NCBI GenBank assembly: GCA_015068455.1
Contig: SVKO01000004.1
Coordinates: forward strand, 62,001-126,000
Source of the DNA: Oscillospiraceae bacterium
GTDB lineage: Bacteria > Bacillota > Clostridia > Oscillospirales > Oscillospiraceae
DNA length: 64,000 nt
Reading direction: 5' to 3'
Within the stretch, counting starts at the first letter, position 1. Each line of letters opens with the position of its first letter. This document shows, piece by piece, positions 51,896 to 63,466 of this stretch. A model generated the notes under the pieces. It ran no database searches. It was not told the DNA's origin and saw only the letters and a program-made list of their open reading frames with translations. Made by a program: the position numbers and the translations under genes.

Positions 51896-51970
51896 GGTGC
51901 CATAGCCAAGTGGTAAGGCAAAGGTCTGCAAAACCTTCATTCCCCGGTTCAAATCCGGGTGGCACCTCCA
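51896..51970 (+). tRNA. tRNA-Cys (anticodon GCA), target of island insertion
   Basis: 75 nt with encoded CCA; acceptor GGTGCCA/TGGCACC; anticodon loop TCTGCAA. Bases from 51926 onward are repeated at 63388, showing that an element integrated into the 3' half while leaving a complete tRNA. Confidence 0.96.
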
Positions 51971-52172: not shown

Positions 52173-52312
52173 TTACAGTGCGAAATCGCGGATTGTTTCC
52201 TCCATAAATCGATCGGTAGTCGTTACATAGACTCTCTCAGTAATATTAGAAATACTATGACCCAGGTAGTCTGCCACAAGTTTTCGATTGCCGTTTGTAT
52301 ATTCGTAGAAAT
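52173..52312 (-). pseudogene. Tyrosine integrase, C-terminal remnant
   Basis: The minus strand reads to a stop at 52173 through FYEYTNGNRKLVADYLGHS followed by SNITERVYVTTTDRF. The LGHS...Y spacing is the C-terminal catalytic signature of tyrosine recombinases (LGH with the nucleophile Tyr in ITERVYV). The frame has no N-terminal half: upstream sequence belongs instead to the XRE remnant on the other strand. Placement beside attL, pointing at it, is what an integrase of a tRNA-targeting element would have. The gene is dead; the upper boundary is approximate. Confidence 0.75.
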
Positions 52313-52525
52313 ATTGAACTTGCAAATGCCCTTAATACGACAGCTGATGAATTGTTACAGGACAGCTTGGAAAACACTGCAGTAATTACTCAATGTAGCT
52401 TTAGCAATTTGCTGGCGGACTGTTCTTCCTACGAACAAAAGGTGTTATTAGACATTATTACGGCGGCAAAGGAAACGCTTAGAAATAACGAAATGCGCAT
52501 TTCTTCCCATCGCAATAAATGGTAG
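52295..52525 (+). pseudogene. XRE-family regulator, C-terminal remnant
   Basis: The frame reads IELANALNTTADELLQDSLE, the end of a Cro/C1-type helix-turn-helix domain (last helix and linker), and a C-terminal tail with LLADCSSYEQKVLLDIIT. Helices 1-3 are missing: only the final 76 residues remain, starting at a TTG without ribosome site. Its 5' end overlaps the integrase remnant, so one deletion probably fused the two truncated genes. XRE regulators next to the integrase are common in conjugative and phage-like elements. Confidence 0.65.
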
Positions 52526-52883: not shown

Positions 52884-54983
52884 TTAGTCCAACTGATAGA
52901 TCCGTAATCCATCATACTTTTTGATCAACTTAAGCATGCTGTTAAACGGTTTCCAGTCCTTTCCTTTGTCTTCGTCAGTCAGTGTATAATAGTGCTTCTT
53001 GATATCGCTATCAGATAGATTGCCGTCCATGGCAAGTTTATGCATTCTAAGTTGTTCTCTTAAATCTTTGCCGGAAAATGATCGATCTATTATTGTTAGC
53101 GCCTCTTTATCTAAATAAAGATCCCCATTTTTCCAGCCCATCCATTGATGCTCGAGTACCCAACGCTTATGCTCCATAGGGGCAAAAACAGCAGTCTGTG
53201 ATTCCTCAAAATGATCTAGAATCCGATAGCTTACAGGTCTGTCGGTATAGAAACATCCAATCGCGTTGAGATATTTGCTGAAGGATTTTGCTTGGTTGAT
53301 ATTTGACAACTGATACTCCAGAGACAGTGTTTCAAACTCTTCTTCAAGCTTCTTTGTATTAACAGTATCTTCTTTTCCATTATAGTTGTATCTTGCATTC
53401 AACACAACAGCAAAGTCATACAAATGTAAAAAGTTGCTGACGGAAAGATAGGTATGCTTGACACTACGATCCACCGGTGCCATTTTAATGCTGACCGTAA
53501 GATTGTTCTTGTCTATTTCGACGATCTTATGTATCTCTTCGAGAAAACTTTGCTCATTTTCATACATCTTGCTGAAGCTTTTTAGCTCTGGCTTTTCAGG
53601 ATCAGGAAAATGTGCCAAGCATTTTTGCAGATATCCTATATATTTGTCCTTATATTGATCGATTTTTTCCCATTCGTCAGTATCATATACATAGATTGCG
53701 TTGATTTGCCCCTTGGAAAAATCGAATTCTGCGTTGAAAGGATGGGCTTCTTGCCGTGTGTTCCTCCCATATGAGGCTCTGTCCCAGCACTGCAATTCAT
53801 CACAAAGCATCAGAAGATAAGCCAAAGGATGCTGAGTAATTTTTAAAGGGGAGTTGGGTGTTTTTCTGGCCCCGGTTTCATCCTTTTTTTTGTAAAAAGC
53901 TATGCTGAACTTAAATATACTGTTATGAAGCAGAATTGCAGTCAGGGCATCAATGTGTTCCCTTTTTATGGGGTAATGTCTATCCTCGATGCCCTGATCC
54001 CAAAAGCTCAAAAGCTTTTGAAAGAGAAGATTTGCCGAGAACCATGCATGATCCATATAAAGACCATACTTATCCGGCTTAGTTGGTTTGCACTTTATTA
54101 TATTACATAGGGCGCTCTCGTTAATATCGTAGGCTACACCAAGCTTATTGAATATATCATGTGCAAACAGTTTATTAGTGTCAGTGAATTTTTGGCCATA
54201 GAGAGTTTCGAGATGCTCCCTCATTTTAACAGGTATCTTGGTCAGTTGGTTAACATTGTGGTAGACAATATGGACGGAGTTGCGTTTACGCTTGATGTTA
54301 TCGACTTCGTAATAGGAACAAACCTCCTCAAATGGTATTTCAAAGGGATAGCCGATGTCGTGAAATAGAGATGTGAGCCCCCAGTATTCCAAAAAGAAGT
54401 GCGCTGCCATGTGATCTTCTGCAGTGTTGCTTTCATCCGTATCAAAATTATAGTATTCCTTAAATTTTTTTCGGAAGTATGCATTTGTCTCATAAATTGC
54501 AAGGCCTAGTGAGAAAACATAAACGGTGTGGGAATAATGGTCGCGATGTTTCATCAGTAGAGATGAGCCGTTGGTTTCAAATTCAGAAAGGAGTTCTACA
54601 CGTTTCTTGCTGCTGCTATAATCACCGAAGAACATTTCCATATAGCAGAAATAAACAGTGTATGCATCCTCGGCGACCCCGGAATCAATAAAGCGCTCAA
54701 GTTCGCGTTCAAGACACAAACGGTTGATGTCCATTTGCATATTAAACGGGATCTGGTGTTCTTTCATACTCTTGCCAAGCAAGATATTATTATCATCTTC
54801 TTCTTTCGTCTTGCCTGCATCGAATTGTAAATTTTCGCACCGATTGTGCAAAAACCGCAATACAGCGCTTTTAAAGTCAAAGCCATCTTCATTGAAATGC
54901 TTCTCGGGTATAGCGGGGCCGACATCCTTCCCAAACCTCTTTTTGTTTTCTTCGCTCATTTTTGATAACGCTGTGTAAGCCAT
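52884..54983 (-). CDS. HD-domain protein with C-terminal RyR-like domain
   Basis: A 699-residue soluble protein. The HD phosphohydrolase ligands are visible: His152, the pair His208-Asp209 (LFHDIGYPFE), His312 (MDHAWFSANLL), His353 (LLHNS) and Asp395 (LMLCDELQCWDR). Residues about 600-699 contain MEHKRWVLEHQWMGW, the RyR-domain signature, a module found in ryanodine receptors and in prokaryotic nucleotide-centred conflict systems. HD enzymes cleave nucleotides or cyclic nucleotides; the RyR part may sense a nucleotide-derived ligand. AAAGGA precedes the ATG. It is transcribed alone, away from the next rightward set. Function is inferred, family not named exactly. Confidence 0.75.
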   Translation of the reverse strand: MAYTALSKMSEENKKRFGKDVGPAIPEKHFNEDGFDFKSAVLRFLHNRCENLQFDAGKTKEEDDNNILLGKSMKEHQIPFNMQMDINRLCLERELERFIDSGVAEDAYTVYFCYMEMFFGDYSSSKKRVELLSEFETNGSSLLMKHRDHYSHTVYVFSLGLAIYETNAYFRKKFKEYYNFDTDESNTAEDHMAAHFFLEYWGLTSLFHDIGYPFEIPFEEVCSYYEVDNIKRKRNSVHIVYHNVNQLTKIPVKMREHLETLYGQKFTDTNKLFAHDIFNKLGVAYDINESALCNIIKCKPTKPDKYGLYMDHAWFSANLLFQKLLSFWDQGIEDRHYPIKREHIDALTAILLHNSIFKFSIAFYKKKDETGARKTPNSPLKITQHPLAYLLMLCDELQCWDRASYGRNTRQEAHPFNAEFDFSKGQINAIYVYDTDEWEKIDQYKDKYIGYLQKCLAHFPDPEKPELKSFSKMYENEQSFLEEIHKIVEIDKNNLTVSIKMAPVDRSVKHTYLSVSNFLHLYDFAVVLNARYNYNGKEDTVNTKKLEEEFETLSLEYQLSNINQAKSFSKYLNAIGCFYTDRPVSYRILDHFEESQTAVFAPMEHKRWVLEHQWMGWKNGDLYLDKEALTIIDRSFSGKDLREQLRMHKLAMDGNLSDSDIKKHYYTLTDEDKGKDWKPFNSMLKLIKKYDGLRIYQLD

Positions 54984-55469: not shown

Positions 55470-56029
55470 ATGCAAAGCCAAGTTCAGATTTATTTAGATG
55501 ATGCCAGGAAACTTCAAAAAAATGGTGATTATGAACAAGCTATATCTTTTCTGAAATCAGCATATCTTGAGGACAGCTTAAAATTACACGAAATTGAAAT
55601 AGAAAAACTGCTGAGTTTTAATTATCGTAAAACTGGTGATTATAATTTAGCATTATTGCATATTAATCGCGCGATAAACCGGAATTCAAAAAAATGGTCT
55701 CTGATATTACCGTTGATGAGCACGCAATATGCCTCATGAATAAAGGGATTATTTATGAAGAAATGAACCGATCTAAAGACGCAATAGTGTGTTATTTACA
55801 TGCAATTAAGATTTTTGTTCAATTATATGAAAATAAACCAATCGAATACGGTAAAATAATAAATGCAATGTTCACTTTGGGACATTGTAATTATAAAAAC
55901 AGATTATTTGATAAAGCGCAGGAAACACTACAGTCCACGTTACAATACTTCGGAGAAGGAAAAGAGAACGACAGACGTTACATTGCAATATGCAATACTT
56001 TAGAGGAACTATCTAATATTGAAAACTGA
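55470..56029 (+). pseudogene. TPR protein split by an A7 frameshift
   Basis: Two overlapping frames make one tetratricopeptide-repeat protein of about 186 residues: 55470-55739 (EQAISFLKSAYLEDSLKLHE, DYNLALLHINRAINR) and a frame from about 55694 (GIIYEEMNRSKDAIVCYLHA, NRLFDKAQETLQSTLQYFGE). The switch is a -1 shift at seven A (55688-55694), where the codons read TCA AAA AAA TGG: a canonical A-AAA-AAA slippery heptamer in the right phase. It may therefore be a broken gene, a sequencing indel, or programmed -1 frameshifting. TPR proteins are scaffolds or sensors; partners are unknown. Its last bases touch the next gene. Confidence 0.65.
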
Positions 56030-56030
56030 A

Positions 56031-56354
56031 ATGATTTATTATAACAAATTAGTACGTGACAAAATCCCTCAAATTATTCATGAAAAGGGTTGCGAAGCGA
56101 TTACTCGTGTTCTTCACGATGAAGAATTTGCAGACTGCTTGAAAAACAAACTCCTTGAAGAAACTAATGAATATATTCAGGATGGAAGTGTAGAAGAGTT
56201 GGCAGATATTTACGAGGTTATCCTAGCAATACTGAGGAGCAAGGGCGTTTCTTATGAATGTTTTGAAGCGATTCGAAAAAAGAAAGAAGCAGAAAGAGGA
56301 GCTTTTACGAAAAAGATTTATTTAGAATATGTGAGTGAGTCATCACAACAGTAA
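56031..56354 (+). CDS. MazG-like nucleoside triphosphate pyrophosphohydrolase
   Basis: A 107-residue all-alpha pyrophosphohydrolase. The YYNKLVRDKIPQII start and the ExxE...ExxD metal-binding helix pair (LLEETNEYIQDGSVEELADIYEVI) are typical of this MazG-superfamily branch, usually annotated phosphoribosyl-ATP pyrophosphohydrolase or NTP pyrophosphohydrolase. It would remove pyrophosphate from (d)NTPs or modified nucleotides. The start is uncertain: ATG 56031 is used, a TTG at 56019 overlaps the TPR stop. The tandem ThyX gene follows after 14 nt. Confidence 0.85.
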   Translation: MIYYNKLVRDKIPQIIHEKGCEAITRVLHDEEFADCLKNKLLEETNEYIQDGSVEELADIYEVILAILRSKGVSYECFEAIRKKKEAERGAFTKKIYLEYVSESSQQ

Positions 56355-56368
56355 AAAAGGTGGAAAAA

Positions 56369-57712
56369 ATGATTGTTAAACTAATTAGCTGGAATCTCAA
56401 CAACGACGCATTGTGCGCAAGCGCTGCAAGAATATCCACGACAAAAGGAACCGCAATTGAGATTTTTGATAAGGCGACTGATTCGGAAAAAAACAAAAAT
56501 CTGATTGCCAAAGTTTTGAGCTCAGGACATACGTCTATTATTGAGCATGCTGTGTTTACTTTTGCTCTGGAGAACGTTTCTGCATTTACAGAGGAATTCT
56601 TCATTGAGTGTCGTCTTGCCTCCTTTACCGTAAAATCAAGGCGCTACGTTGACTTCAGCGGCCTTGGCTATTATACTCCCCAGGATCTGGAAAGCAGCGA
56701 TTTGCAGATTTACCACGCATATATGGATAAGCTTTTCGCGGCATACAATGAAATGTTGGAAAACGGGGTTCCTAAAGAAGACGCTCGTTTTCTGCTTCCA
56801 TATTCGTTCAATAGCAACTTTTATTGCACGATGAATGCTCGTGAGTTGATTCGCATCATTTCCGAAATAAGATATGGGCGGATGGCGGCTATCCCAGAAT
56901 TATGTGATCTGGCAGACCAAATTTTGCAGCAAACCGCGTCAGTATTTCCTATTGTGAATTTAGTCGTTGAGAATATGCGAGATAGCTGGCATTTGAATAA
57001 CGCTAGGGATTTCAGTTATCCCGCGATGGGTGAATTGGAAATTCTGACAGAATCAGAGATTGGTAAGGTCGAAATGCTTCAGGCACCGACAAAGCCCAAG
57101 GAGATTTTGCAAATAGCGTCTCAATGCTATCACCCACAGAAACTTAATGTAGTGGCTGTTGATGAGATATTACAGACCAACCGGAATCGTGAACTTGAGC
57201 AGCTTACTTATACTTTCCATATCAGGAACATTACTTTGTCCGGTATCACCCACATTGTGCGACATAGAATGCAGTCTTTAATAATTCCTCCGTTAACCGA
57301 AATCAATTACAATAAAATAATTGTTCCAAATACAATTGCTAAGAATCCAGAGTTGTTACACCGCTATCAAGTTGTACTTGCGGATATTGCAGACATGCGA
57401 AAGACAATCAGAACTCGTCCGACACTTCTAAAATATCAATACTATTTTGCACTCAGTGGTAATTTGGCAGACATATTATCTACGGTAAATGGTCGAGAGT
57501 TGATTCATATGATTCGATTGCGTTCCTGTAACCGTGCACAGTGGGAAATTAAAAACATCGTTGTAGCAATGTTAAAGCTCGCCAGGAGTAATTATCCAGA
57601 GTTGTTTCAAAAGGTTGGTCCAAACTGTTTCATGTACGGCAAATGTCCTGAGACACGCCTTGCGTGTGGAAAACAGAGTCAGACTATCAAAGAGTTTTCA
57701 GATCTAAAGTAA
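56369..57712 (+). CDS. thyX: Tandem-domain FAD-dependent thymidylate synthase (ThyX-like)
   Basis: A 447-residue protein with two ThyX-like halves, about twice the single-domain length. Half 1 (1-215) has SSGHTSIIEHAVFTF and, where the motif RHRxxSxxxxSxR is expected, ECRLASFTVKSRRY, so only the last Arg and the SxR part survive; ARFLLPYSFNSNFY is present. Half 2 (about 240-447) has IVRHRMQSL with the RHRxxS part intact and a good RAQWEI segment. Motifs missing in one half exist in the other, so a composite active site is possible. ThyX methylates dUMP with CH2-THF and FAD. ATG 56369 has AAAGGTGG upstream. It may work on a modified nucleotide in this island. Confidence 0.85.
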   Translation: MIVKLISWNLNNDALCASAARISTTKGTAIEIFDKATDSEKNKNLIAKVLSSGHTSIIEHAVFTFALENVSAFTEEFFIECRLASFTVKSRRYVDFSGLGYYTPQDLESSDLQIYHAYMDKLFAAYNEMLENGVPKEDARFLLPYSFNSNFYCTMNARELIRIISEIRYGRMAAIPELCDLADQILQQTASVFPIVNLVVENMRDSWHLNNARDFSYPAMGELEILTESEIGKVEMLQAPTKPKEILQIASQCYHPQKLNVVAVDEILQTNRNRELEQLTYTFHIRNITLSGITHIVRHRMQSLIIPPLTEINYNKIIVPNTIAKNPELLHRYQVVLADIADMRKTIRTRPTLLKYQYYFALSGNLADILSTVNGRELIHMIRLRSCNRAQWEIKNIVVAMLKLARSNYPELFQKVGPNCFMYGKCPETRLACGKQSQTIKEFSDLK

Positions 57713-57807
57713 ATAACTGTACCAATAGAAATGTGTTGCTTAGATTCACGAAGGATAATCTATAAACTGACCCACGAAGAGCTTTTTGTAGATCAAGCAT
57801 ACGTCCA

Positions 57808-57833
57808 CCAGGCCGCTAATATTAGCGGCCTGG
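57808..57833 (+). terminator. Palindrome after thyX
   Basis: A perfect 26-bp palindrome (CCAGGCCGCTAAT and reverse complement) followed by TATTATTTG, the first of three hairpins before the convergent gene. Confidence 0.65.
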
Positions 57834-57842
57834 TATTATTTG

Positions 57843-57881: not shown

Positions 57882-57909
57882 GAGGCGCCCGTTTTGGCGC
57901 CTCACTTTT
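57882..57909. terminator. Third hairpin, terminator at the desulfurase stop
   Basis: GAGGCGCC pairs with GGCGCCTC, then ACTTTTT on the plus strand. The stop codon of the cysteine desulfurase is inside the right arm. Confidence 0.65.
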
Positions 57910-59077
57910 TCATATACATATTCCTATACTCCGCATTCATGCTTCTGAGTGTTGAAACCGCTGTTTTCAAAACATGGGCAAGATATAAAACCTCATCGAT
58001 CGTATTGCGCTCATTAAGGGAGATTCGAAGTGCGCCTCTCGCCAGTTCATACGGGATGCCCATAGCAAGCAGAACATGGGACGGCTCTTTTGCGTTTGAG
58101 GCACATGCGGAAGAAGATGAAGCAAAGATGCCATTCATACTCAGATACCGAACAAGATCTGAGCCGTCAACGTAATCAAAACAGATATGTAATGTTCCCG
58201 GAAGAGTATTGTCTAGGCGGCCGCTGAGATGGGCCATCGGAATATCGTGCAAAGCTTCAAGTAGGCGCAATTTGATTGACTGCACAGATTGTTTCTTCTT
58301 TAGGTCGTTTATTGCCAACTCGACTGCTGTCGCGAGGCCCATAATCCCCGGTACGTTTTCTGTGCCGCCTCTGTAACCTCTCTCCTGACCGCCACCATGA
58401 AGGAACGGTTCTATTTTGGTTCCTCGTCTAAGATATAGTATACCGATACCCTTTGGCCCACCAAGTTTATGGCCGGAAAAACTCATGGCATCAAACAATC
58501 CTTTGCTTAAATCTAGTTCAACGTTTCCAATCGCCTGAACCGCATCAGAGAAAAAAGGTATATTGTGCCAGTGAGCAAGCTCCGATATTTTATCGACTGG
58601 TTGCAATACACCGGTTTCATTGTTGGCTAGCATAACCGTTATCAGCGCGGTATTCAAATTGATAAGCGTCTCCAATTCCTCGGGAACGACCTCACCAAAG
58701 GAGTTTGTTTTGAGATAGGCTGCTTTGTATGCAAATCGTTCCAAAGCTTTAATTGCGTTGAGAACTGACGGATGTTCGATTTGACTAGTGATCAGTTCTT
58801 TCTTTTCCGATGCCATCGCCATACCGAATATTGCCCAGTTATTTGACTCTGTTCCTCCTGAGGTAAAATATAGTTCATCTGGATGACATTTTAAACAGTA
58901 TGCAATCCGTTCTCTGGCCTCATCGATATTCCTTCTAGCATATATGCCGCACTTGTGGATACTGGATGGATTTCCAAAAACAGTCTGAAGGAAAGGTTGC
59001 ATTGCTGCAACCACTTCATCTCGAACAGGCGTTGAGGCAGCATTGTCAACATAAATCTGCTGGTTACTCTGTATCAT
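57902..59077 (-). CDS. Cysteine desulfurase (NifS/IscS-like)
   Basis: A 391-residue PLP enzyme: YVDNAASTPVRDEV at the N-terminus, TSGGTESNNWAI, the PLP lysine in SFSGHKLGGPKG, the structural RGGTENVPG and the mobile loop SSSSACASNAKEPS with the catalytic Cys. It takes sulfur from cysteine as a persulfide for clusters or thiolated nucleic acids. Its start overlaps the HIT gene by 14 nt, so it is the last gene of the leftward operon. Desulfurases (DndA) serve phosphorothioate DNA modification, but no dndBCDE is here, so what takes the sulfur is unknown. Confidence 0.92.
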   Translation of the reverse strand: MIQSNQQIYVDNAASTPVRDEVVAAMQPFLQTVFGNPSSIHKCGIYARRNIDEARERIAYCLKCHPDELYFTSGGTESNNWAIFGMAMASEKKELITSQIEHPSVLNAIKALERFAYKAAYLKTNSFGEVVPEELETLINLNTALITVMLANNETGVLQPVDKISELAHWHNIPFFSDAVQAIGNVELDLSKGLFDAMSFSGHKLGGPKGIGILYLRRGTKIEPFLHGGGQERGYRGGTENVPGIMGLATAVELAINDLKKKQSVQSIKLRLLEALHDIPMAHLSGRLDNTLPGTLHICFDYVDGSDLVRYLSMNGIFASSSSACASNAKEPSHVLLAMGIPYELARGALRISLNERNTIDEVLYLAHVLKTAVSTLRSMNAEYRNMYMKK

Positions 59078-59756
59078 TATTTATCACTTCCGTTTGATGA
59101 CAAAACACGTCTATTGTTTTAATCATCTTATCTACATATGGGAACTGACGCCAATCCCAGCTTTCGGGCATATTGTAGTGATTTGCAACAATTCTTCTAA
59201 AAAACTGGGACGGCACAAAACCATCGTCCACTACGTACATGAGCCCGTCAATATCTTGCCAATAAAGATATGGCATATTATTATTGCCTAAAGGCCAAAG
59301 CTCTGAAAACGAGTGTATTTGCCTATACTTCAATGCGTAAGGAAGTATTTCCTCTGTTAAACTACAGTCATAAGGGAGTAGATGCATGTGCGCGTGGTCA
59401 ACACATCCGCCCATGGATACATCGCAAAAAGCGCTGCCATGTTCGAAACAGATTACCTGTTTTCCATAAACATCTTGAAGTCGTGTTTTCACCGCTGCTA
59501 TTAAAGTCGTCTGCTCTTCCAACATCGTTGCCGGCAAACATGCGAAGCTGGAATAGTGCTCCTTGGATACAATCAATAGGTATCCCTCTACGAAGCATCC
59601 AACGGTCGGAAACACAACGAAATTATCTGTCTCCATCACGATTCTAGACGTTTGATTGAGTTGTTTCCCCATATATTGTAGAAAATAATTACATGAATTA
59701 GGGATTTGATTTATTTCAGCGCAGAACGCACAAGTATCTTGAATCGATCGAATCAT
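59064..59756 (-). CDS. HIT-like nucleotide hydrolase/transferase protein
   Basis: A 230-residue HIT-superfamily protein. A CAFC pair lies near the start, FVVFPTVGCFVEGYLLIVSK is the usual beta core, and HAHMHLLPYD carries the HxHxH triad that binds the nucleotide alpha-phosphate. The C-terminal 90 residues (YLYWQDIDGLMYVVDDGFVP...SWDWRQFPY) resemble the longer HIT/GalT-like members. HIT proteins hydrolyse or transfer nucleoside monophosphates. I start at ATG 59756 with GAGG 8 nt upstream, inside the end of the previous gene. Coupled to the desulfurase downstream. Confidence 0.85.
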   Translation of the reverse strand: MIRSIQDTCAFCAEINQIPNSCNYFLQYMGKQLNQTSRIVMETDNFVVFPTVGCFVEGYLLIVSKEHYSSFACLPATMLEEQTTLIAAVKTRLQDVYGKQVICFEHGSAFCDVSMGGCVDHAHMHLLPYDCSLTEEILPYALKYRQIHSFSELWPLGNNNMPYLYWQDIDGLMYVVDDGFVPSQFFRRIVANHYNMPESWDWRQFPYVDKMIKTIDVFCHQTEVINNDTE

Positions 59757-59766
59757 CCATAATTCC

Positions 59767-60321
59767 TCACTCATTTAAACCGATGCAATGATTAATCCAA
59801 TTAATTAACTTCTCCTTAAGGTCTTCCTGATCTTCTATGTTTACAACTCTGTATATTAAGCTTTGCCGACCATGTACATCAAATGGAATCTTAATGCCTG
59901 TATCTCTTGCTGCTTTCTTGCCCGTCTCCGTGTTTCCTTCGGCCTTTTCTTCGACTGTATCAGCCCTAAAGCATGGGCAAACGAGACAGCCGAGCGCATG
60001 GGCCATTCCAAGCATGTAAAAAACATTTGCGTCTTTCCTAGTACACTCAACAATAGCTATATCTGCGTTATATAAGGTTTCACAATCTTTTTTTAACTCT
60101 TTATTATTGACATTAATAAGCTTTAATGCCCATGTTCCGATTTGTATTGTTTTATTTAGTTCTTCAATTACAGTTTTTACAATTCGTACAAAACAATGTA
60201 AAGCTTCTTTTTCAGCTTTCTCAAAGGTTTCTGAGTAGCTGTAAATCATAACCACCTCGTGATAGCCATTCGATGAGTGGAGATCTTGAGAAATACAGAA
60301 TGCGTTCGGACAAATAAACAT
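59767..60321 (-). CDS. NDT/TIR-like nucleotide-binding protein lacking the catalytic Glu
   Basis: A 184-residue protein with a Rossmann-like nucleoside 2-deoxyribosyltransferase (NDT) or TIR-like core: ADIAIVECTRKDANVFYMLGMAHALG (about 86-111; the two parts are quoted separately in the literature as the D-x-x-x-x-N-V-F-Y and G-x-A-H blocks). Relatives have FYELG; here FYMLG, so the usual nucleophilic Glu is Met103. It may be a sensor or inactive partner of the 563-residue protein with the same domain, whose gene ends 28 nt upstream. ATG 60321 has AAGGAG at 8 nt. Exact ligand is unknown. Confidence 0.75.
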   Translation of the reverse strand: MFICPNAFCISQDLHSSNGYHEVVMIYSYSETFEKAEKEALHCFVRIVKTVIEELNKTIQIGTWALKLINVNNKELKKDCETLYNADIAIVECTRKDANVFYMLGMAHALGCLVCPCFRADTVEEKAEGNTETGKKAARDTGIKIPFDVHGRQSLIYRVVNIEDQEDLKEKLINWINHCIGLNE

Positions 60322-60349
60322 ATTATTTTCTCCTTCCATCCAATGCCTT

Positions 60350-62041
60350 TCAAAGCTTGCGAAGCTCTTCCTTTTTCGCCCAATAATCATCCAGTTTTTT
60401 CTGGACTTCTGTTTTTTCTTTTTCCGTCATGTAAAAACTATTTATGTTATCTTTAATAAACTCAAATAGTGCCGATTGGAGATCTTCGTATGGGTAATTC
60501 TTTCCCGTTTTTTCATAACGATAGTTGTTGAGATTATTATCATTTACAGTGGTGTCATATGGAAACTCATCCTGATCTGCAGAACAAAGAAACACTTTTT
60601 TCCCGAGTCCATGTGCAAGACCGGCCTCATAGAATACATTTGCCTTTTTTCCGCTGCAATCCACAATGATGAACTGTGCCTGGCTCATGCGATCCAATAT
60701 TCGATCCATAATCGCTGCATCATAGGGCTCGTTTGTTGACAGCCACAAATTGAAGCCTGCTTCATTTAACAATTCTTCCACAGAAGAAACAGTATTTTTT
60801 GAGATCTGCGTTGCATCTCCTTCGGAAAAAGACATAAACATCACCACACTATACCGATCTATGGACCGATGCTCCATTTGGACAATATAGGGAGATATTT
60901 TCATAAAACAAGCATTATTCGACTCATGGATGTTCAAAAACTCTGTCAGAGTATGCAGAACATTTAAGCCGCGAATGTGGTGGGAAAACGTTGGCGCTTC
61001 ATCCCAGGAGAGGTACATTGATTTTTCTTCAATAGTATCAATGATTTCTTCCAAATCATCCATAAAAAGTTCAAAAAGAGAAAAGGGAAGAATATCAGAA
61101 ATCATAAGCTTTAAAATTGCGTCCAAGTATAGTAACCGGGAATCTGCCAAAAGAGTTTCCCATGTGAAATCCGTATCAGTGTTAACCCGATATGTTTCCC
61201 GAATGGTAAAGCCAGACCGAATTTCCTTATCATTCAAAGAATAAAACACGGCATCTGTCACATTTTTAACGCTATTGGTGTCATCGCGCCATGTGTAAAT
61301 AGCGTTTGAGAGTGCGAACAAAGCAGCAACAAAATCTTTCTTTTTACGATAGCGTTCAAATTTATTAGTATCATTCCGTGGAAACGACATATTTTGTTCC
61401 CTTTTTGCAAAATCGCAATATTCGCAAATATAGGAAAGAAACAGTGGCTGTGTCTTTGGTTTTATGATTTGACTACAGCCCTGTTTTGACATAAGGATAT
61501 ATGCATATGCTGTTGTCAAAACGCTGCTATCATTTTCATTTTTTATTGCGGGCTGAACCATTCCAGTTTCAGTAATAAAGGCTGCTTCTACAATCCTCCT
61601 ATTCTTTTCCATTATTTGATTAAGGTGATCACTGGTATTTGCTCCATTTTTTTGCAGTGCCAAACATGCATAAAGATGAAAAATCATCTTTAACGTAATG
61701 TTTTGGTTTGCATTCAGCCTCTTTTTACGAATCATAACATATTTATTCTGTTGTTCCTCAGGTAAGGTTGAAGCTGACTCCTTAAACATATATTCAAGTT
61801 CCGGAACAAGCTCTTGAATCATTTCTGAATATTGATCATAATAAAAAGAGAACAGTGTAAGTGCAGCTGTAGTGGCATACAGGCCAGAATAAACGCCATC
61901 CTTCCATTGCTCATACCATCCACCCTTGGGATTATCGGTCCATATGGATTTACATCTATGTGAATACATATAATCAAGAGCCTTTTTCATAGCTTCTTCA
62001 GCCTTTTGCTTGAGACTATTTATTGTTAACACGTTTTCCAT
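60350..62041 (-). CDS. Alpha-toroid-like protein with C-terminal NDT/TIR-like domain
   Basis: A 563-residue protein. The N-terminal 390 residues are helical with aromatic/Gly-rich repeats such as GGWYEQWKDGVYSGLYATTA and TTAYAYILMSKQG that recall alpha/alpha-toroid (terpene-cyclase/prenyltransferase-type) folds. Residues about 398-500 form an NDT/TIR-like domain: YSVVMFMSFSEGDATQ, then IIVDCSGKKANVFYEAGLAHG with the FYE glutamate (Glu472) kept. A charged coiled segment ends it. The combination suggests a large recognition module controlling a nucleotide-cleaving or -transferring domain. No exact family is recognised. It lies directly after an XRE gene and before the small NDT-like gene. Confidence 0.7.
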   Translation of the reverse strand: MENVLTINSLKQKAEEAMKKALDYMYSHRCKSIWTDNPKGGWYEQWKDGVYSGLYATTAALTLFSFYYDQYSEMIQELVPELEYMFKESASTLPEEQQNKYVMIRKKRLNANQNITLKMIFHLYACLALQKNGANTSDHLNQIMEKNRRIVEAAFITETGMVQPAIKNENDSSVLTTAYAYILMSKQGCSQIIKPKTQPLFLSYICEYCDFAKREQNMSFPRNDTNKFERYRKKKDFVAALFALSNAIYTWRDDTNSVKNVTDAVFYSLNDKEIRSGFTIRETYRVNTDTDFTWETLLADSRLLYLDAILKLMISDILPFSLFELFMDDLEEIIDTIEEKSMYLSWDEAPTFSHHIRGLNVLHTLTEFLNIHESNNACFMKISPYIVQMEHRSIDRYSVVMFMSFSEGDATQISKNTVSSVEELLNEAGFNLWLSTNEPYDAAIMDRILDRMSQAQFIIVDCSGKKANVFYEAGLAHGLGKKVFLCSADQDEFPYDTTVNDNNLNNYRYEKTGKNYPYEDLQSALFEFIKDNINSFYMTEKEKTEVQKKLDDYWAKKEELRKL

Positions 62042-62084
62042 TTTCTCTCTCCATTAAATCAGATACGTAATCAGTTAGTATCTA

Positions 62085-62321
62085 CTATGGCTTCGGAGGA
62101 TAATACTTCAAAATATCGCTGATACCGCAATTAAGCGCATTACAAATCCTCGCTAAAACGCCTAAATCAGGCCGTTGTACCTGATTTCGACAGTAAGAAA
62201 TCAGCTGTGATCGTTGCAGGTCAGCATACACTTCCAATTGATTCTTACTAATCTGATGTGCGTCGAGATATTCTGCAAGCTCAATTCGGACAAAGCCCCA
62301 ATCTCTTTCTATCATTTTCAT
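62085..62321 (-). CDS. XRE-family transcriptional regulator
   Basis: A 78-residue Cro/C1-type regulator consisting of little more than a helix-turn-helix domain: LAEYLDAHQISKNQLEVYAD then LQRSQLISYCRNQVQRPDLG and ARICNALNCGISDILKYYPP. A GGAGAG site is before the ATG. It heads the leftward operon (43 nt before the toroid gene) and probably regulates that operon and itself; the operator is not identified. Confidence 0.88.
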   Translation of the reverse strand: MKMIERDWGFVRIELAEYLDAHQISKNQLEVYADLQRSQLISYCRNQVQRPDLGVLARICNALNCGISDILKYYPPKP

Positions 62322-62644: not shown

Positions 62645-63175
62645 ATGCTTTTTTCACTGCCATGTAATAGAGATGATTTGATCGATCAACAGTCTTTCGG
62701 GAAGCTGATTTACAATCTGAATCTTGTTTCCAAGAATCAGACTTGCTATAAGACTGAACCTTCTGTTGTGATCAGCAATGAGCTGTTTCGCGATTTCAGA
62801 TATACTCAAGCATTGCCTGATAATACGATCTCGGAAATTGTTAGGCGGTTAACGCATCTTCATATTGCGAATGCAACTGTTTTCATGAGTTTTTTCGAAG
62901 ATTGCGATGTCATGGATCAGCCAATCACTATACGGGTATCTGATGTTAGGCTGTCAAGTATGTTTTTTCCTTTGCCAGATTTCAGTATTCTATCGAGTTG
63001 CATCGACTATTTGAATGTGAATTCGAGTGTGTTTCATTATTATTCAATGAACATTAATGGCGGTATGCCAAGAAGATATCATCGTGTAAAGCGATTAAAA
63101 ACGGATTTACGTATTGTCAAGATTCGAGTTGAGGATATAAACAAGGCACTTGATCTTATCTATAGGTTGATATAG
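62645..63175 (+). CDS. Hypothetical protein of the island
   Basis: A 176-residue reading frame of AT-rich composition like the rest of the island. I recognise no domain or motif. It has a mixed alpha/beta look (VIRIS-type strands such as TVFMSFFEDCDVMD, a basic stretch KRLKTDLRIVKIRVED) without signal peptide. AGAAGGGA stands 10 nt upstream. It could be a real gene or the remaining part of a larger one; no partner is adjacent. Confidence 0.5.
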   Translation: MLFSLPCNRDDLIDQQSFGKLIYNLNLVSKNQTCYKTEPSVVISNELFRDFRYTQALPDNTISEIVRRLTHLHIANATVFMSFFEDCDVMDQPITIRVSDVRLSSMFFPLPDFSILSSCIDYLNVNSSVFHYYSMNINGGMPRRYHRVKRLKTDLRIVKIRVEDINKALDLIYRLI

Positions 63176-63387
63176 GGAGGCATAATGACAGCGGCAGAAT
63201 ACGCATATAATTAACAATGATCGTATGAATTCAAACCAGAGGATAGAGATAAATGCTGCCTGACGATGAGGGCCGTAAATATCAATTCATTTTCGTTTCA
63301 TCTTGTGGTTATTTGTGTGGTTTTTTTGACCCTCTAACCTGCGAGAATCTTTATAAATAAAAGGATCTTGGATAGTTCGGTTAAGAC
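63176..63387. other. Right end of the island
   Basis: No gene. It contains the arm-type copy TGTGGTTATTT (63304-63314) followed by a related GTGTGGTTTT, and the approach to attR. Confidence 0.5.
63304..63324. repeat. Right-end arm-type repeats
   Basis: TGTGGTTATTT as at 52151, followed directly by a second GTGTGGTTTT. Confidence 0.4.
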
Positions 63388-63436
63388 CTGCAAAACCTTC
63401 ATTCCCCGGTTCAAATCCGGGTGGCACCTCCAAAAA
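63388..63436 (+). repeat. attR: right 49-bp direct repeat (tRNA-Cys 3' fragment)
   Basis: Exact copy of 51926-51974. The preceding bases do not continue the tRNA (no D-arm or acceptor 5' strand), so this is a fragment left by integration. Confidence 0.9.
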
Positions 63437-63466
63437 TCCCGATCACGAAAGTGGTCGGGATTTCTT
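63432..63466 (+). terminator. Ancestral tRNA-Cys terminator, right of attR
   Basis: AAAAATCCCGATCAC and GTGGTCGGGATTTCTTT, same place relative to the CCA as the terminator at 51971 but different sequence. Confidence 0.8.

What the first reader, a model, noticed from the sequence alone, without database searches (positions are those of the whole stretch)
57902..62321. Candidate undescribed operon: XRE, toroid-NDT, NDT-like, HIT, cysteine desulfurase
Five leftward genes with gaps or overlaps of -14 to 43 nt: a regulator, two proteins with the same NDT/TIR-like nucleotide domain (one with a big helical toroid-like region), a HIT phosphohydrolase/transferase and a PLP desulfurase. The combination suggests generation, sensing and processing of a nucleotide-based, possibly sulfur-modified, molecule. 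Location on a tRNA island suggests a defence or conflict role. Each domain call is seen in sequence; the system is inference.
Basis: partly seen in the sequence, partly recalled or inferred. Interest (0 to 1): 0.8.

Follow-up and report, generated by a model that had tools for sequence, protein, structure and literature searches.

The report
Nucleotide-enzyme operon on tRNA-Cys island
A small mobile DNA island in this bacterium carries two facing operons of nucleotide enzymes, one pairing an unusual histidine-triad protein with a sulfur-releasing enzyme (a pairing that recurs in unrelated bacteria) and one holding the only thymidylate-synthase gene left in the genome, so it looks like a real and undescribed nucleotide system whose exact job, defence or chemistry, is not yet proven.

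Summary
The five genes are real and form one leftward unit. They sit in an 11.4-kb, 38% GC island between tRNA-Cys (51896-51970) and a copy of its 3' half (63383-63463; 49-nt identical core), with only a relic of an integrase. A second, rightward unit (TPR, NTP-pyrophosphohydrolase, double ThyX) faces it; a hairpin terminator closes each. The five-gene order was not found elsewhere, and the 563-aa protein has no full-length relative in what I searched. But HIT plus cysteine desulfurase recurs in Lactococcus, Streptomyces and Rhizobium, with desulfurases of different subfamilies; and HIT plus NTP-pyrophosphohydrolase plus double ThyX recurs in Parabacteroides. The HIT is CwfJ/CWF19L1-like, not HINT. 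The large NDT domain keeps the catalytic Glu (E472); the small one has Met there (M126), so it is probably a non-catalytic partner. 'Toroid' is plausible but unproven. Unexpectedly, the host lost thyA and folA in one deletion, and the island ThyX is its only Thy1 gene. Best reading: a nucleotide-centred conflict island with an NDT effector, a HIT-desulfurase nucleotide/sulfur step and its own dTMP supply. The sulfur chemistry and the defence role are inference.

The parts
51896..51970 (+). tRNA-Cys (GCA); attachment site, left end of island (attL)
   Evidence: ARAGORN; 3' half repeated at 63383-63463
52173..52325 (-). relic of a tyrosine-recombinase C-terminus (LGHSISNITERVYVTTT); no intact integrase
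   Evidence: ORF translation, motif read by eye; not database-tested
52884..54983 (-). 699-aa protein with HD-type motifs and a weak RyR-like C-terminus
   Evidence: ORF; RyR only E 0.48; no Pfam or PHROG hit
55470..56029 (+). TPR gene, split by a frame change near the A-run at 55688
   Evidence: ORFs 55470-55739 and 55694-56029; TPR_2 E 5e-5
56019..56354 (+). NTP-pyrophosphohydrolase of the YxKLVRDxIPxxI type
   Evidence: 40% identical to the Streptomyces pSMg1-2 protein, 37% to the C-terminal domain in Caulobacter
56360..57712 (+). double ThyX (two Thy1 domains), the only Thy1 gene of the genome
   Evidence: PF02511 E 4e-67, two stretches; own-genome search; PDB 1kq4 E 7e-17
57807..57834 (+). 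terminator-like hairpin after ThyX (12 bp)
57882..57903 (-). terminator-like hairpin at the end of the desulfurase gene (8 bp)
57902..59077 (-). cysteine desulfurase, NifS/IscS type; Lys204 (SGHK) and Cys325 (SSSSAC) kept
59064..59774 (-). CwfJ/CWF19L1-like HIT protein; H127-x-H129-x-H131 and CxxC kept
59767..60321 (-). small NDT-like protein, 184 aa from the start with the good RBS; catalytic Glu replaced by Met126 (numbering of the 207-aa form)
60350..62041 (-). 563-aa protein: helical region 1-370 (toroid-like, unproven) + NDT/TIR-like domain about 395-535 with Glu472
62085..62321 (-). XRE/HTH_26 regulator
   Evidence: HTH_26 E 2e-14
62645..63175 (+). 176-aa protein of unknown kind, divergent from XRE
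   Evidence: no hit
63383..63463 (+). attR: copy of tRNA-Cys 3' half and terminator, 88% over 81 nt, 49-nt identical core

Best explanation
An 11.4-kb tRNA-Cys-integrated island encodes a nucleotide-centred conflict system in two facing operons. SHOWN: the island ends, the gene content, the intact catalytic residues of desulfurase, HIT and the large NDT, loss of the catalytic Glu in the small NDT, recurrence of HIT+desulfurase and of HIT+NTP-PPase+double ThyX in other hosts, and loss of host thyA-folA. INFERRED: the helical region of the 563-aa protein holds its NDT domain inactive until a trigger (a phage product, or a ligand bound by the Glu-less small NDT), then the NDT domain cleaves the glycosidic bond of a nucleotide and stops DNA synthesis. 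The HIT protein forms a nucleotidyl-histidine and, with sulfur from the desulfurase, makes or removes a sulfur-bearing nucleotide that serves as ligand or protected pool. NTP-PPase plus double ThyX keeps dUMP-to-dTMP supply under island control and now replaces host ThyA/FolA, which ties the host to the island. XRE represses the unit.
For: Island ends and foreign composition. HIT found in 1 of 401 family genomes, so a rare acquisition. NDT domain hits the PADLOC TIR effector profile E 2e-6; Glu kept versus lost, where the aligned DNPH1/NDT residue is the proposed nucleophile (PMC10483697). HIT next to class-V PLP desulfurase in Lactococcus, Rhizobium and two Streptomyces plasmids, plus a truncated Lactococcus copy; the partners belong to different desulfurase subfamilies, all with the Cys kept, which points to selection on the pairing, not on one inherited block. 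Parabacteroides: double ThyX, helical-AAA ATPase, HIT, PRA-PH in one operon. Parallel Rhizobium/Sinorhizobium units pair a helical-AAA protein with a DUF4406 (NDT-like) protein. thyA-folA deletion with the island ThyX as sole Thy1; M. tuberculosis dfrA-thyA double deletions leave ThyX as the only active synthase (PMC4879365).
Against: No known defence system is matched as a whole. The five-gene order was not found elsewhere. HIT+desulfurase also occurs beside a membrane transporter-like protein (Lactococcus) and inside a cluster of sugar-kinase, PRTase and methyltransferase genes (Rhizobium), which suits small-molecule chemistry as well as defence. The toroid is unproven, and its similarity to the Parabacteroides/Rhizobium helical regions is not significant. 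ThyX may simply be metabolic cargo.
Confidence: 0.42

Rival explanations
1. Biosynthetic or metabolic module: HIT plus cysteine desulfurase make a sulfur- (or nitrogen-) containing nucleotide metabolite; the NDT proteins exchange or sense its base or sugar; NTP-PPase and double ThyX supply the pyrimidine deoxynucleotide. No defence role.
For: Rhizobium HIT+desulfurase lies in a cluster with a PfkB-type kinase, a PRPP-synthetase/PRTase-like, a TrpD-like and methyltransferase genes; Lactococcus HIT+desulfurase is followed by a multi-pass membrane protein that looks like an exporter; Streptomyces HIT lies between a dCTP-deaminase-like protein and an unknown plus desulfurase, with NTP-PPase nearby.
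Against: Operon is on a tRNA island with an XRE regulator and an NDT/TIR-like domain attached to a large helical region; no transporter, no tailoring enzymes.
Confidence: 0.3
2. Nucleotide-pool sanitation: DNPH1-like NDT proteins, NTP-PPase, HIT and HD clear non-canonical deoxynucleotides while ThyX makes dTMP; the host benefits as from a house-cleaning kit.
For: Nearest solved relatives of the small NDT are DNPH1 proteins, though only E 0.4; NTP-PPase plus ThyX is a plausible dUTP-to-dTMP route; Euzebya pairs dcd with a double ThyX.
Against: The small NDT lacks the catalytic Glu; house-cleaning does not explain the large helical region, XRE control or the desulfurase.
Confidence: 0.15
3. Unrelated cargo genes gathered on a decaying island; only NTP-PPase plus ThyX (kept because thyA-folA is lost) is under selection.
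For: Integrase relic, XRE-like relic and a frame-shifted TPR gene show decay; the five-gene order was not seen elsewhere.
Against: Five tight leftward genes with intact catalytic residues, a terminator at the end of the last gene, and HIT-desulfurase and HIT-ThyX-PPase linkage recurring in other phyla.
Confidence: 0.13

Closest known systems
DNPH1 / nucleoside 2-deoxyribosyltransferase (NDT) fold proteins
   Same: Large protein keeps the motif with the catalytic Glu (FYEAG, E472); small protein aligns to the same region of DNPH1
   Different: Helical N-terminal region; small protein has Met at the Glu position; weak similarity only (Pfam below cut-off; DNPH1 E 0.4)
TIR/NDT-like conflict effectors (PADLOC PDLC00733; common 'NVFYELGIAHAL' proteins)
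   Same: C-terminal domain type shared with many bacterial proteins, including several in its own family
   Different: No known sensor partner (CD-NTase, Argonaute, ThsB and the like) nearby; helical region without detected homologues
CwfJ / CWF19L1 HIT proteins
   Same: Profile match over 171 positions including the QF-R...DWR tail
   Different: Stand-alone bacterial protein, complete HxHxH, CxxC at the N-terminus, partnered with a desulfurase
DndA / SspA cysteine desulfurases of DNA phosphorothioation
   Same: Best PADLOC hits, E 1e-126, catalytic Cys kept
   Different: No DndB-E, SspB-D or restriction partners on the island; equally close to housekeeping NifS/IscS, so the hit is generic
ThyX (flavin-dependent thymidylate synthase)
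   Same: Two Thy1 domains; genome lost thyA and folA, as in M. tuberculosis dfrA-thyA double deletions that rely on ThyX (PMC4879365)
   Different: Duplicated ThyX with split motifs (RHR only in the second copy, SRRY only in the first), on a mobile island

Membership tests
Nucleotide-hydrolysing NDT/DNPH1 enzyme (563-aa protein) | catalytic Glu in the F/G-Y-E-x-G motif | tested here: met
   E472 in NVFYEAGLAHG
Nucleotide-hydrolysing NDT/DNPH1 enzyme (small NDT) | catalytic Glu | tested here: not met
   Met126 in NVFYMLGMAHA, aligned with the DNPH1 Glu104 position
alpha/alpha toroid protein | toroid fold of the helical region | tested here: inconclusive
   All-helical prediction but pLDDT 37-39; no family hit; no significant match to other helical-AAA proteins
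CwfJ/CWF19L1-type HIT | HIT triad plus CwfJ C-terminal extension | tested here: met
   PDB 8ro2 CWF19L1 E 2e-8 over 171 positions; CwfJ_C_1 matched by 6 of 7 members
Cysteine desulfurase | PLP Lys and catalytic Cys | tested here: met
   K204 and C325; about 40% identical to the genome's own IscS-type paralogue
Dnd/Ssp phosphorothioation system | desulfurase with DndB-E or SspB-D partners | tested here: not met
   Only the generic desulfurase profile hits; no partner among the island proteins
ThyX | Thy1 domain with RHR-x7-S type motif | tested here: inconclusive
   Two Thy1 domains over cut-off, but RHR and SRRY motif halves lie in different repeats
tRNA-integrated genomic island | tRNA 3'-end duplication and integrase | tested here: inconclusive
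   att repeats met; integrase present only as a relic
Known anti-phage defence system | matching multi-gene PADLOC system | tested here: not met
   Only single-domain hits
Known anti-phage defence system | protection against phage | not testable with these tools
   needs phage challenge

The most novel reading that the evidence does not exclude
HIT and cysteine desulfurase form a two-enzyme module that places sulfur on a nucleotide (for example a nucleoside 5'-thiophosphate made by nucleotidyl transfer from the HIT histidine to a persulfide), producing a sulfur-marked nucleotide signal read by the Glu-less NDT protein to switch the helical-NDT effector, while an island-borne ThyX has taken over the host's thymidylate synthesis and makes the island indispensable.
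Probability: 0.1. Interest if true: 0.88.

Novelty: new variant of a known kind. Interest (0 to 1): 0.58.

Why it matters
If right, it adds a sulfur-mobilising step and a bacterial CwfJ-type HIT enzyme to nucleotide-based bacterial conflict systems, and it shows a mobile island that carries its own thymidylate synthase and has become the host's only evident route to new dTMP. The HIT-desulfurase pair, recurring in four unrelated groups with different desulfurases, is a concrete, cheap biochemical target. The thyA-folA loss makes a clear prediction (ThyX complementation) that can be tested in a laboratory E. coli thyA strain.

Tried and rejected
Single-sequence genome and viral scans with the 563-aa protein, HIT, double ThyX, the Parabacteroides ATPase and the Rhizobium and Streptomyces HITs gave no usable locus. 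tblastn in phages found no relative of the 563-aa protein or of HIT. AF2 on single sequences was too poor for a fold search, so none was run. I first took the helical region of the Parabacteroides and Rhizobium AAA proteins as the same toroid; the comparison is not significant, so it is kept only as a parallel. A RyR domain in the 699-aa protein is suggested by eye but E 0.48. A Dnd/Ssp reading was rejected for lack of partners. Shared ancestry of the Rhizobium 456-aa and the Caulobacter 815-aa proteins was not supported. No empty island site was found: only one congener is held and its tRNA region is not syntenic. Literature searches found no description of the HIT-desulfurase pair; the two papers I would most want (NAR 2015 nucleotide-centric systems; and, from memory, a 2023 NAR paper on nucleotide-targeting effectors) are not held.
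Full report
OBSERVATION. The five ORFs exist as described and carry the stated domains. Gene spacing is tight; the apparent 41-nt overlap between the two NDT genes disappears if the small gene starts at 60321, where a strong ribosome-binding site precedes ATG. A hairpin terminator lies at the end of the desulfurase gene (57903-57882) and another closes the facing ThyX operon (57807-57834). So the leftward unit XRE > helical-NDT > NDT > HIT > desulfurase is one likely transcription unit.

SURROUNDINGS. GC falls from about 60% to about 38% from 52.0 kb to about 63.4 kb. The 3' half of tRNA-Cys (51896-51970) with its terminator is repeated at 63383-63463, with a 49-nt identical core that runs from the anticodon loop past the CCA end: attL and attR. 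Beside attL lie a tyrosine-recombinase C-terminal relic and an XRE-like relic. The element holds, besides the five genes, a 699-aa protein with HD-type motifs, a TPR gene with a frame break, an NTP-pyrophosphohydrolase and a double ThyX. The HIT protein is absent from 400 other genomes of the family and the helical region has no convincing relative in 398 other genomes of the phylum, so this is a rare acquisition.

RELATED LOCI. The exact gene order was found nowhere else. Parts of it recur. (a) HIT + class-V PLP desulfurase: Lactococcus pUC06C (L011), Rhizobium pRL1 (L013), Streptomyces pSMg1-2 and NBC_01278 (L014, L015), and a truncated Lactococcus copy (L017); with the window, 6 of 8 HIT loci. 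The Lactococcus desulfurase is closer to a different subfamily (L062 type) than the others, yet all keep the catalytic Cys. (b) HIT + double ThyX + PRA-PH-type NTP-PPase: Parabacteroides (L012), directly upstream of a DHFR gene. (c) HIT + NTP-PPase: Caulobacter (L016), where the NTP-PPase domain is 37% identical to the window's, and Streptomyces (40%). (d) A helical-AAA protein beside a DUF4406 (NDT-like) protein: Rhizobium beringeri and Sinorhizobium psymA. The last is a parallel in architecture; homology of the helical regions to the window's is not established.

PROTEINS. HIT: the family profile matches human CWF19L1 over 171 positions including the C-terminal extension (E 2e-8) and six of seven members hit CwfJ_C_1; phrog_23000 matches full length. 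All seven keep HxHxH; six of seven have an N-terminal CxxC; by eye, all seven have a Cys 2-4 residues before the first His, which may matter for sulfur but is not aligned strictly. NDT: the large protein keeps Glu472 where DNPH1 has its proposed nucleophile Glu104 (PMC10483697); the small one has Met126. One catalytic, one not. ThyX: two Thy1 domains, RHR in the second, SRRY in the first; Parabacteroides shows the same split, so one composite active site per pair is plausible (inference).

HOST THYMIDYLATE. The only Thy1 gene of the genome is the island's. The PF00303 and PF00186 searches find only fragments at one place (C2:6855-7333). The congener G104 has intact adjacent thyA (276 aa) and folA (173 aa); in this genome about 63 codons of thyA run into folA from about codon 55, a deletion of about 0.8 kb. 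ThyX regenerates tetrahydrofolate, and M. tuberculosis strains that lost dfrA and thyA together depend on ThyX (PMC4879365). So the island ThyX is probably the working synthase and the host is probably tied to the island. Caveats: one genome; misassembly or thymidine auxotrophy is possible.

MECHANISM. Most likely (0.42): a nucleotide-centred conflict island. Catalytic helical-NDT = effector; Glu-less NDT = ligand sensor or brake; HIT+desulfurase = nucleotide/sulfur step; NTP-PPase+ThyX = dTMP supply. The residues, linkage and island are shown; trigger, substrate and sulfur product are inferred. Main rival (0.30): small-molecule or modified-nucleotide biosynthesis, favoured by the Rhizobium cluster and the Lactococcus membrane protein. 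Sanitation (0.15) and random cargo (0.13) are less likely.

NOVELTY. No source that I could search describes the HIT-desulfurase pair, but key papers are not held, so novelty is provisional. I file it as a new variant of nucleotide-centred conflict islands, with the HIT-desulfurase pair as the part most likely to be new.

Noticed in passing
G000:C2:6810-7354 (L066:6810-7354, -) versus L081:1437-2785 (congener G104): thyA and folA lost together by one deletion of about 0.8 kb: about 63 thyA codons run into folA from about codon 55; island ThyX is the only Thy1 gene left.
   Followed up: yes
L012:3352-8638 (Parabacteroides NZ_OY725790): Double ThyX - helical-AAA ATPase - HIT - PRA-PH cassette directly upstream of a dihydrofolate reductase gene, where a thyA might be expected; may have replaced thyA in place.
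   Followed up: partly
window 55470-56029: TPR gene broken into two frames at an A-run (about 55688-55694): frameshift mutation, sequencing error or programmed shift.
   Followed up: no
window 52173-52525: Integrase C-terminal relic (-) and XRE-like C-terminal relic (+) beside attL; the island has no intact recombinase.
   Followed up: partly
window 52884-54983: 699-aa protein with HD-type motifs and a RyR-like tail that hits no family library; could be another nucleotide-targeting effector.
   Followed up: partly
L052:5957-10245 and L053:6011-10229: Rhizobium/Sinorhizobium units: helical-AAA ATPase + DUF4406 (NDT-like) + unknown 456-aa protein, the last two fused in Sinorhizobium.
   Followed up: partly
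L085:5725-8548 (Euzebya pEDY32-46I): dCTP deaminase gene close to a double ThyX 44% identical to the Parabacteroides one.
   Followed up: no
window 62645-63175: 176-aa ORF without any hit, divergent from the XRE gene, last gene before attR.
   Followed up: no
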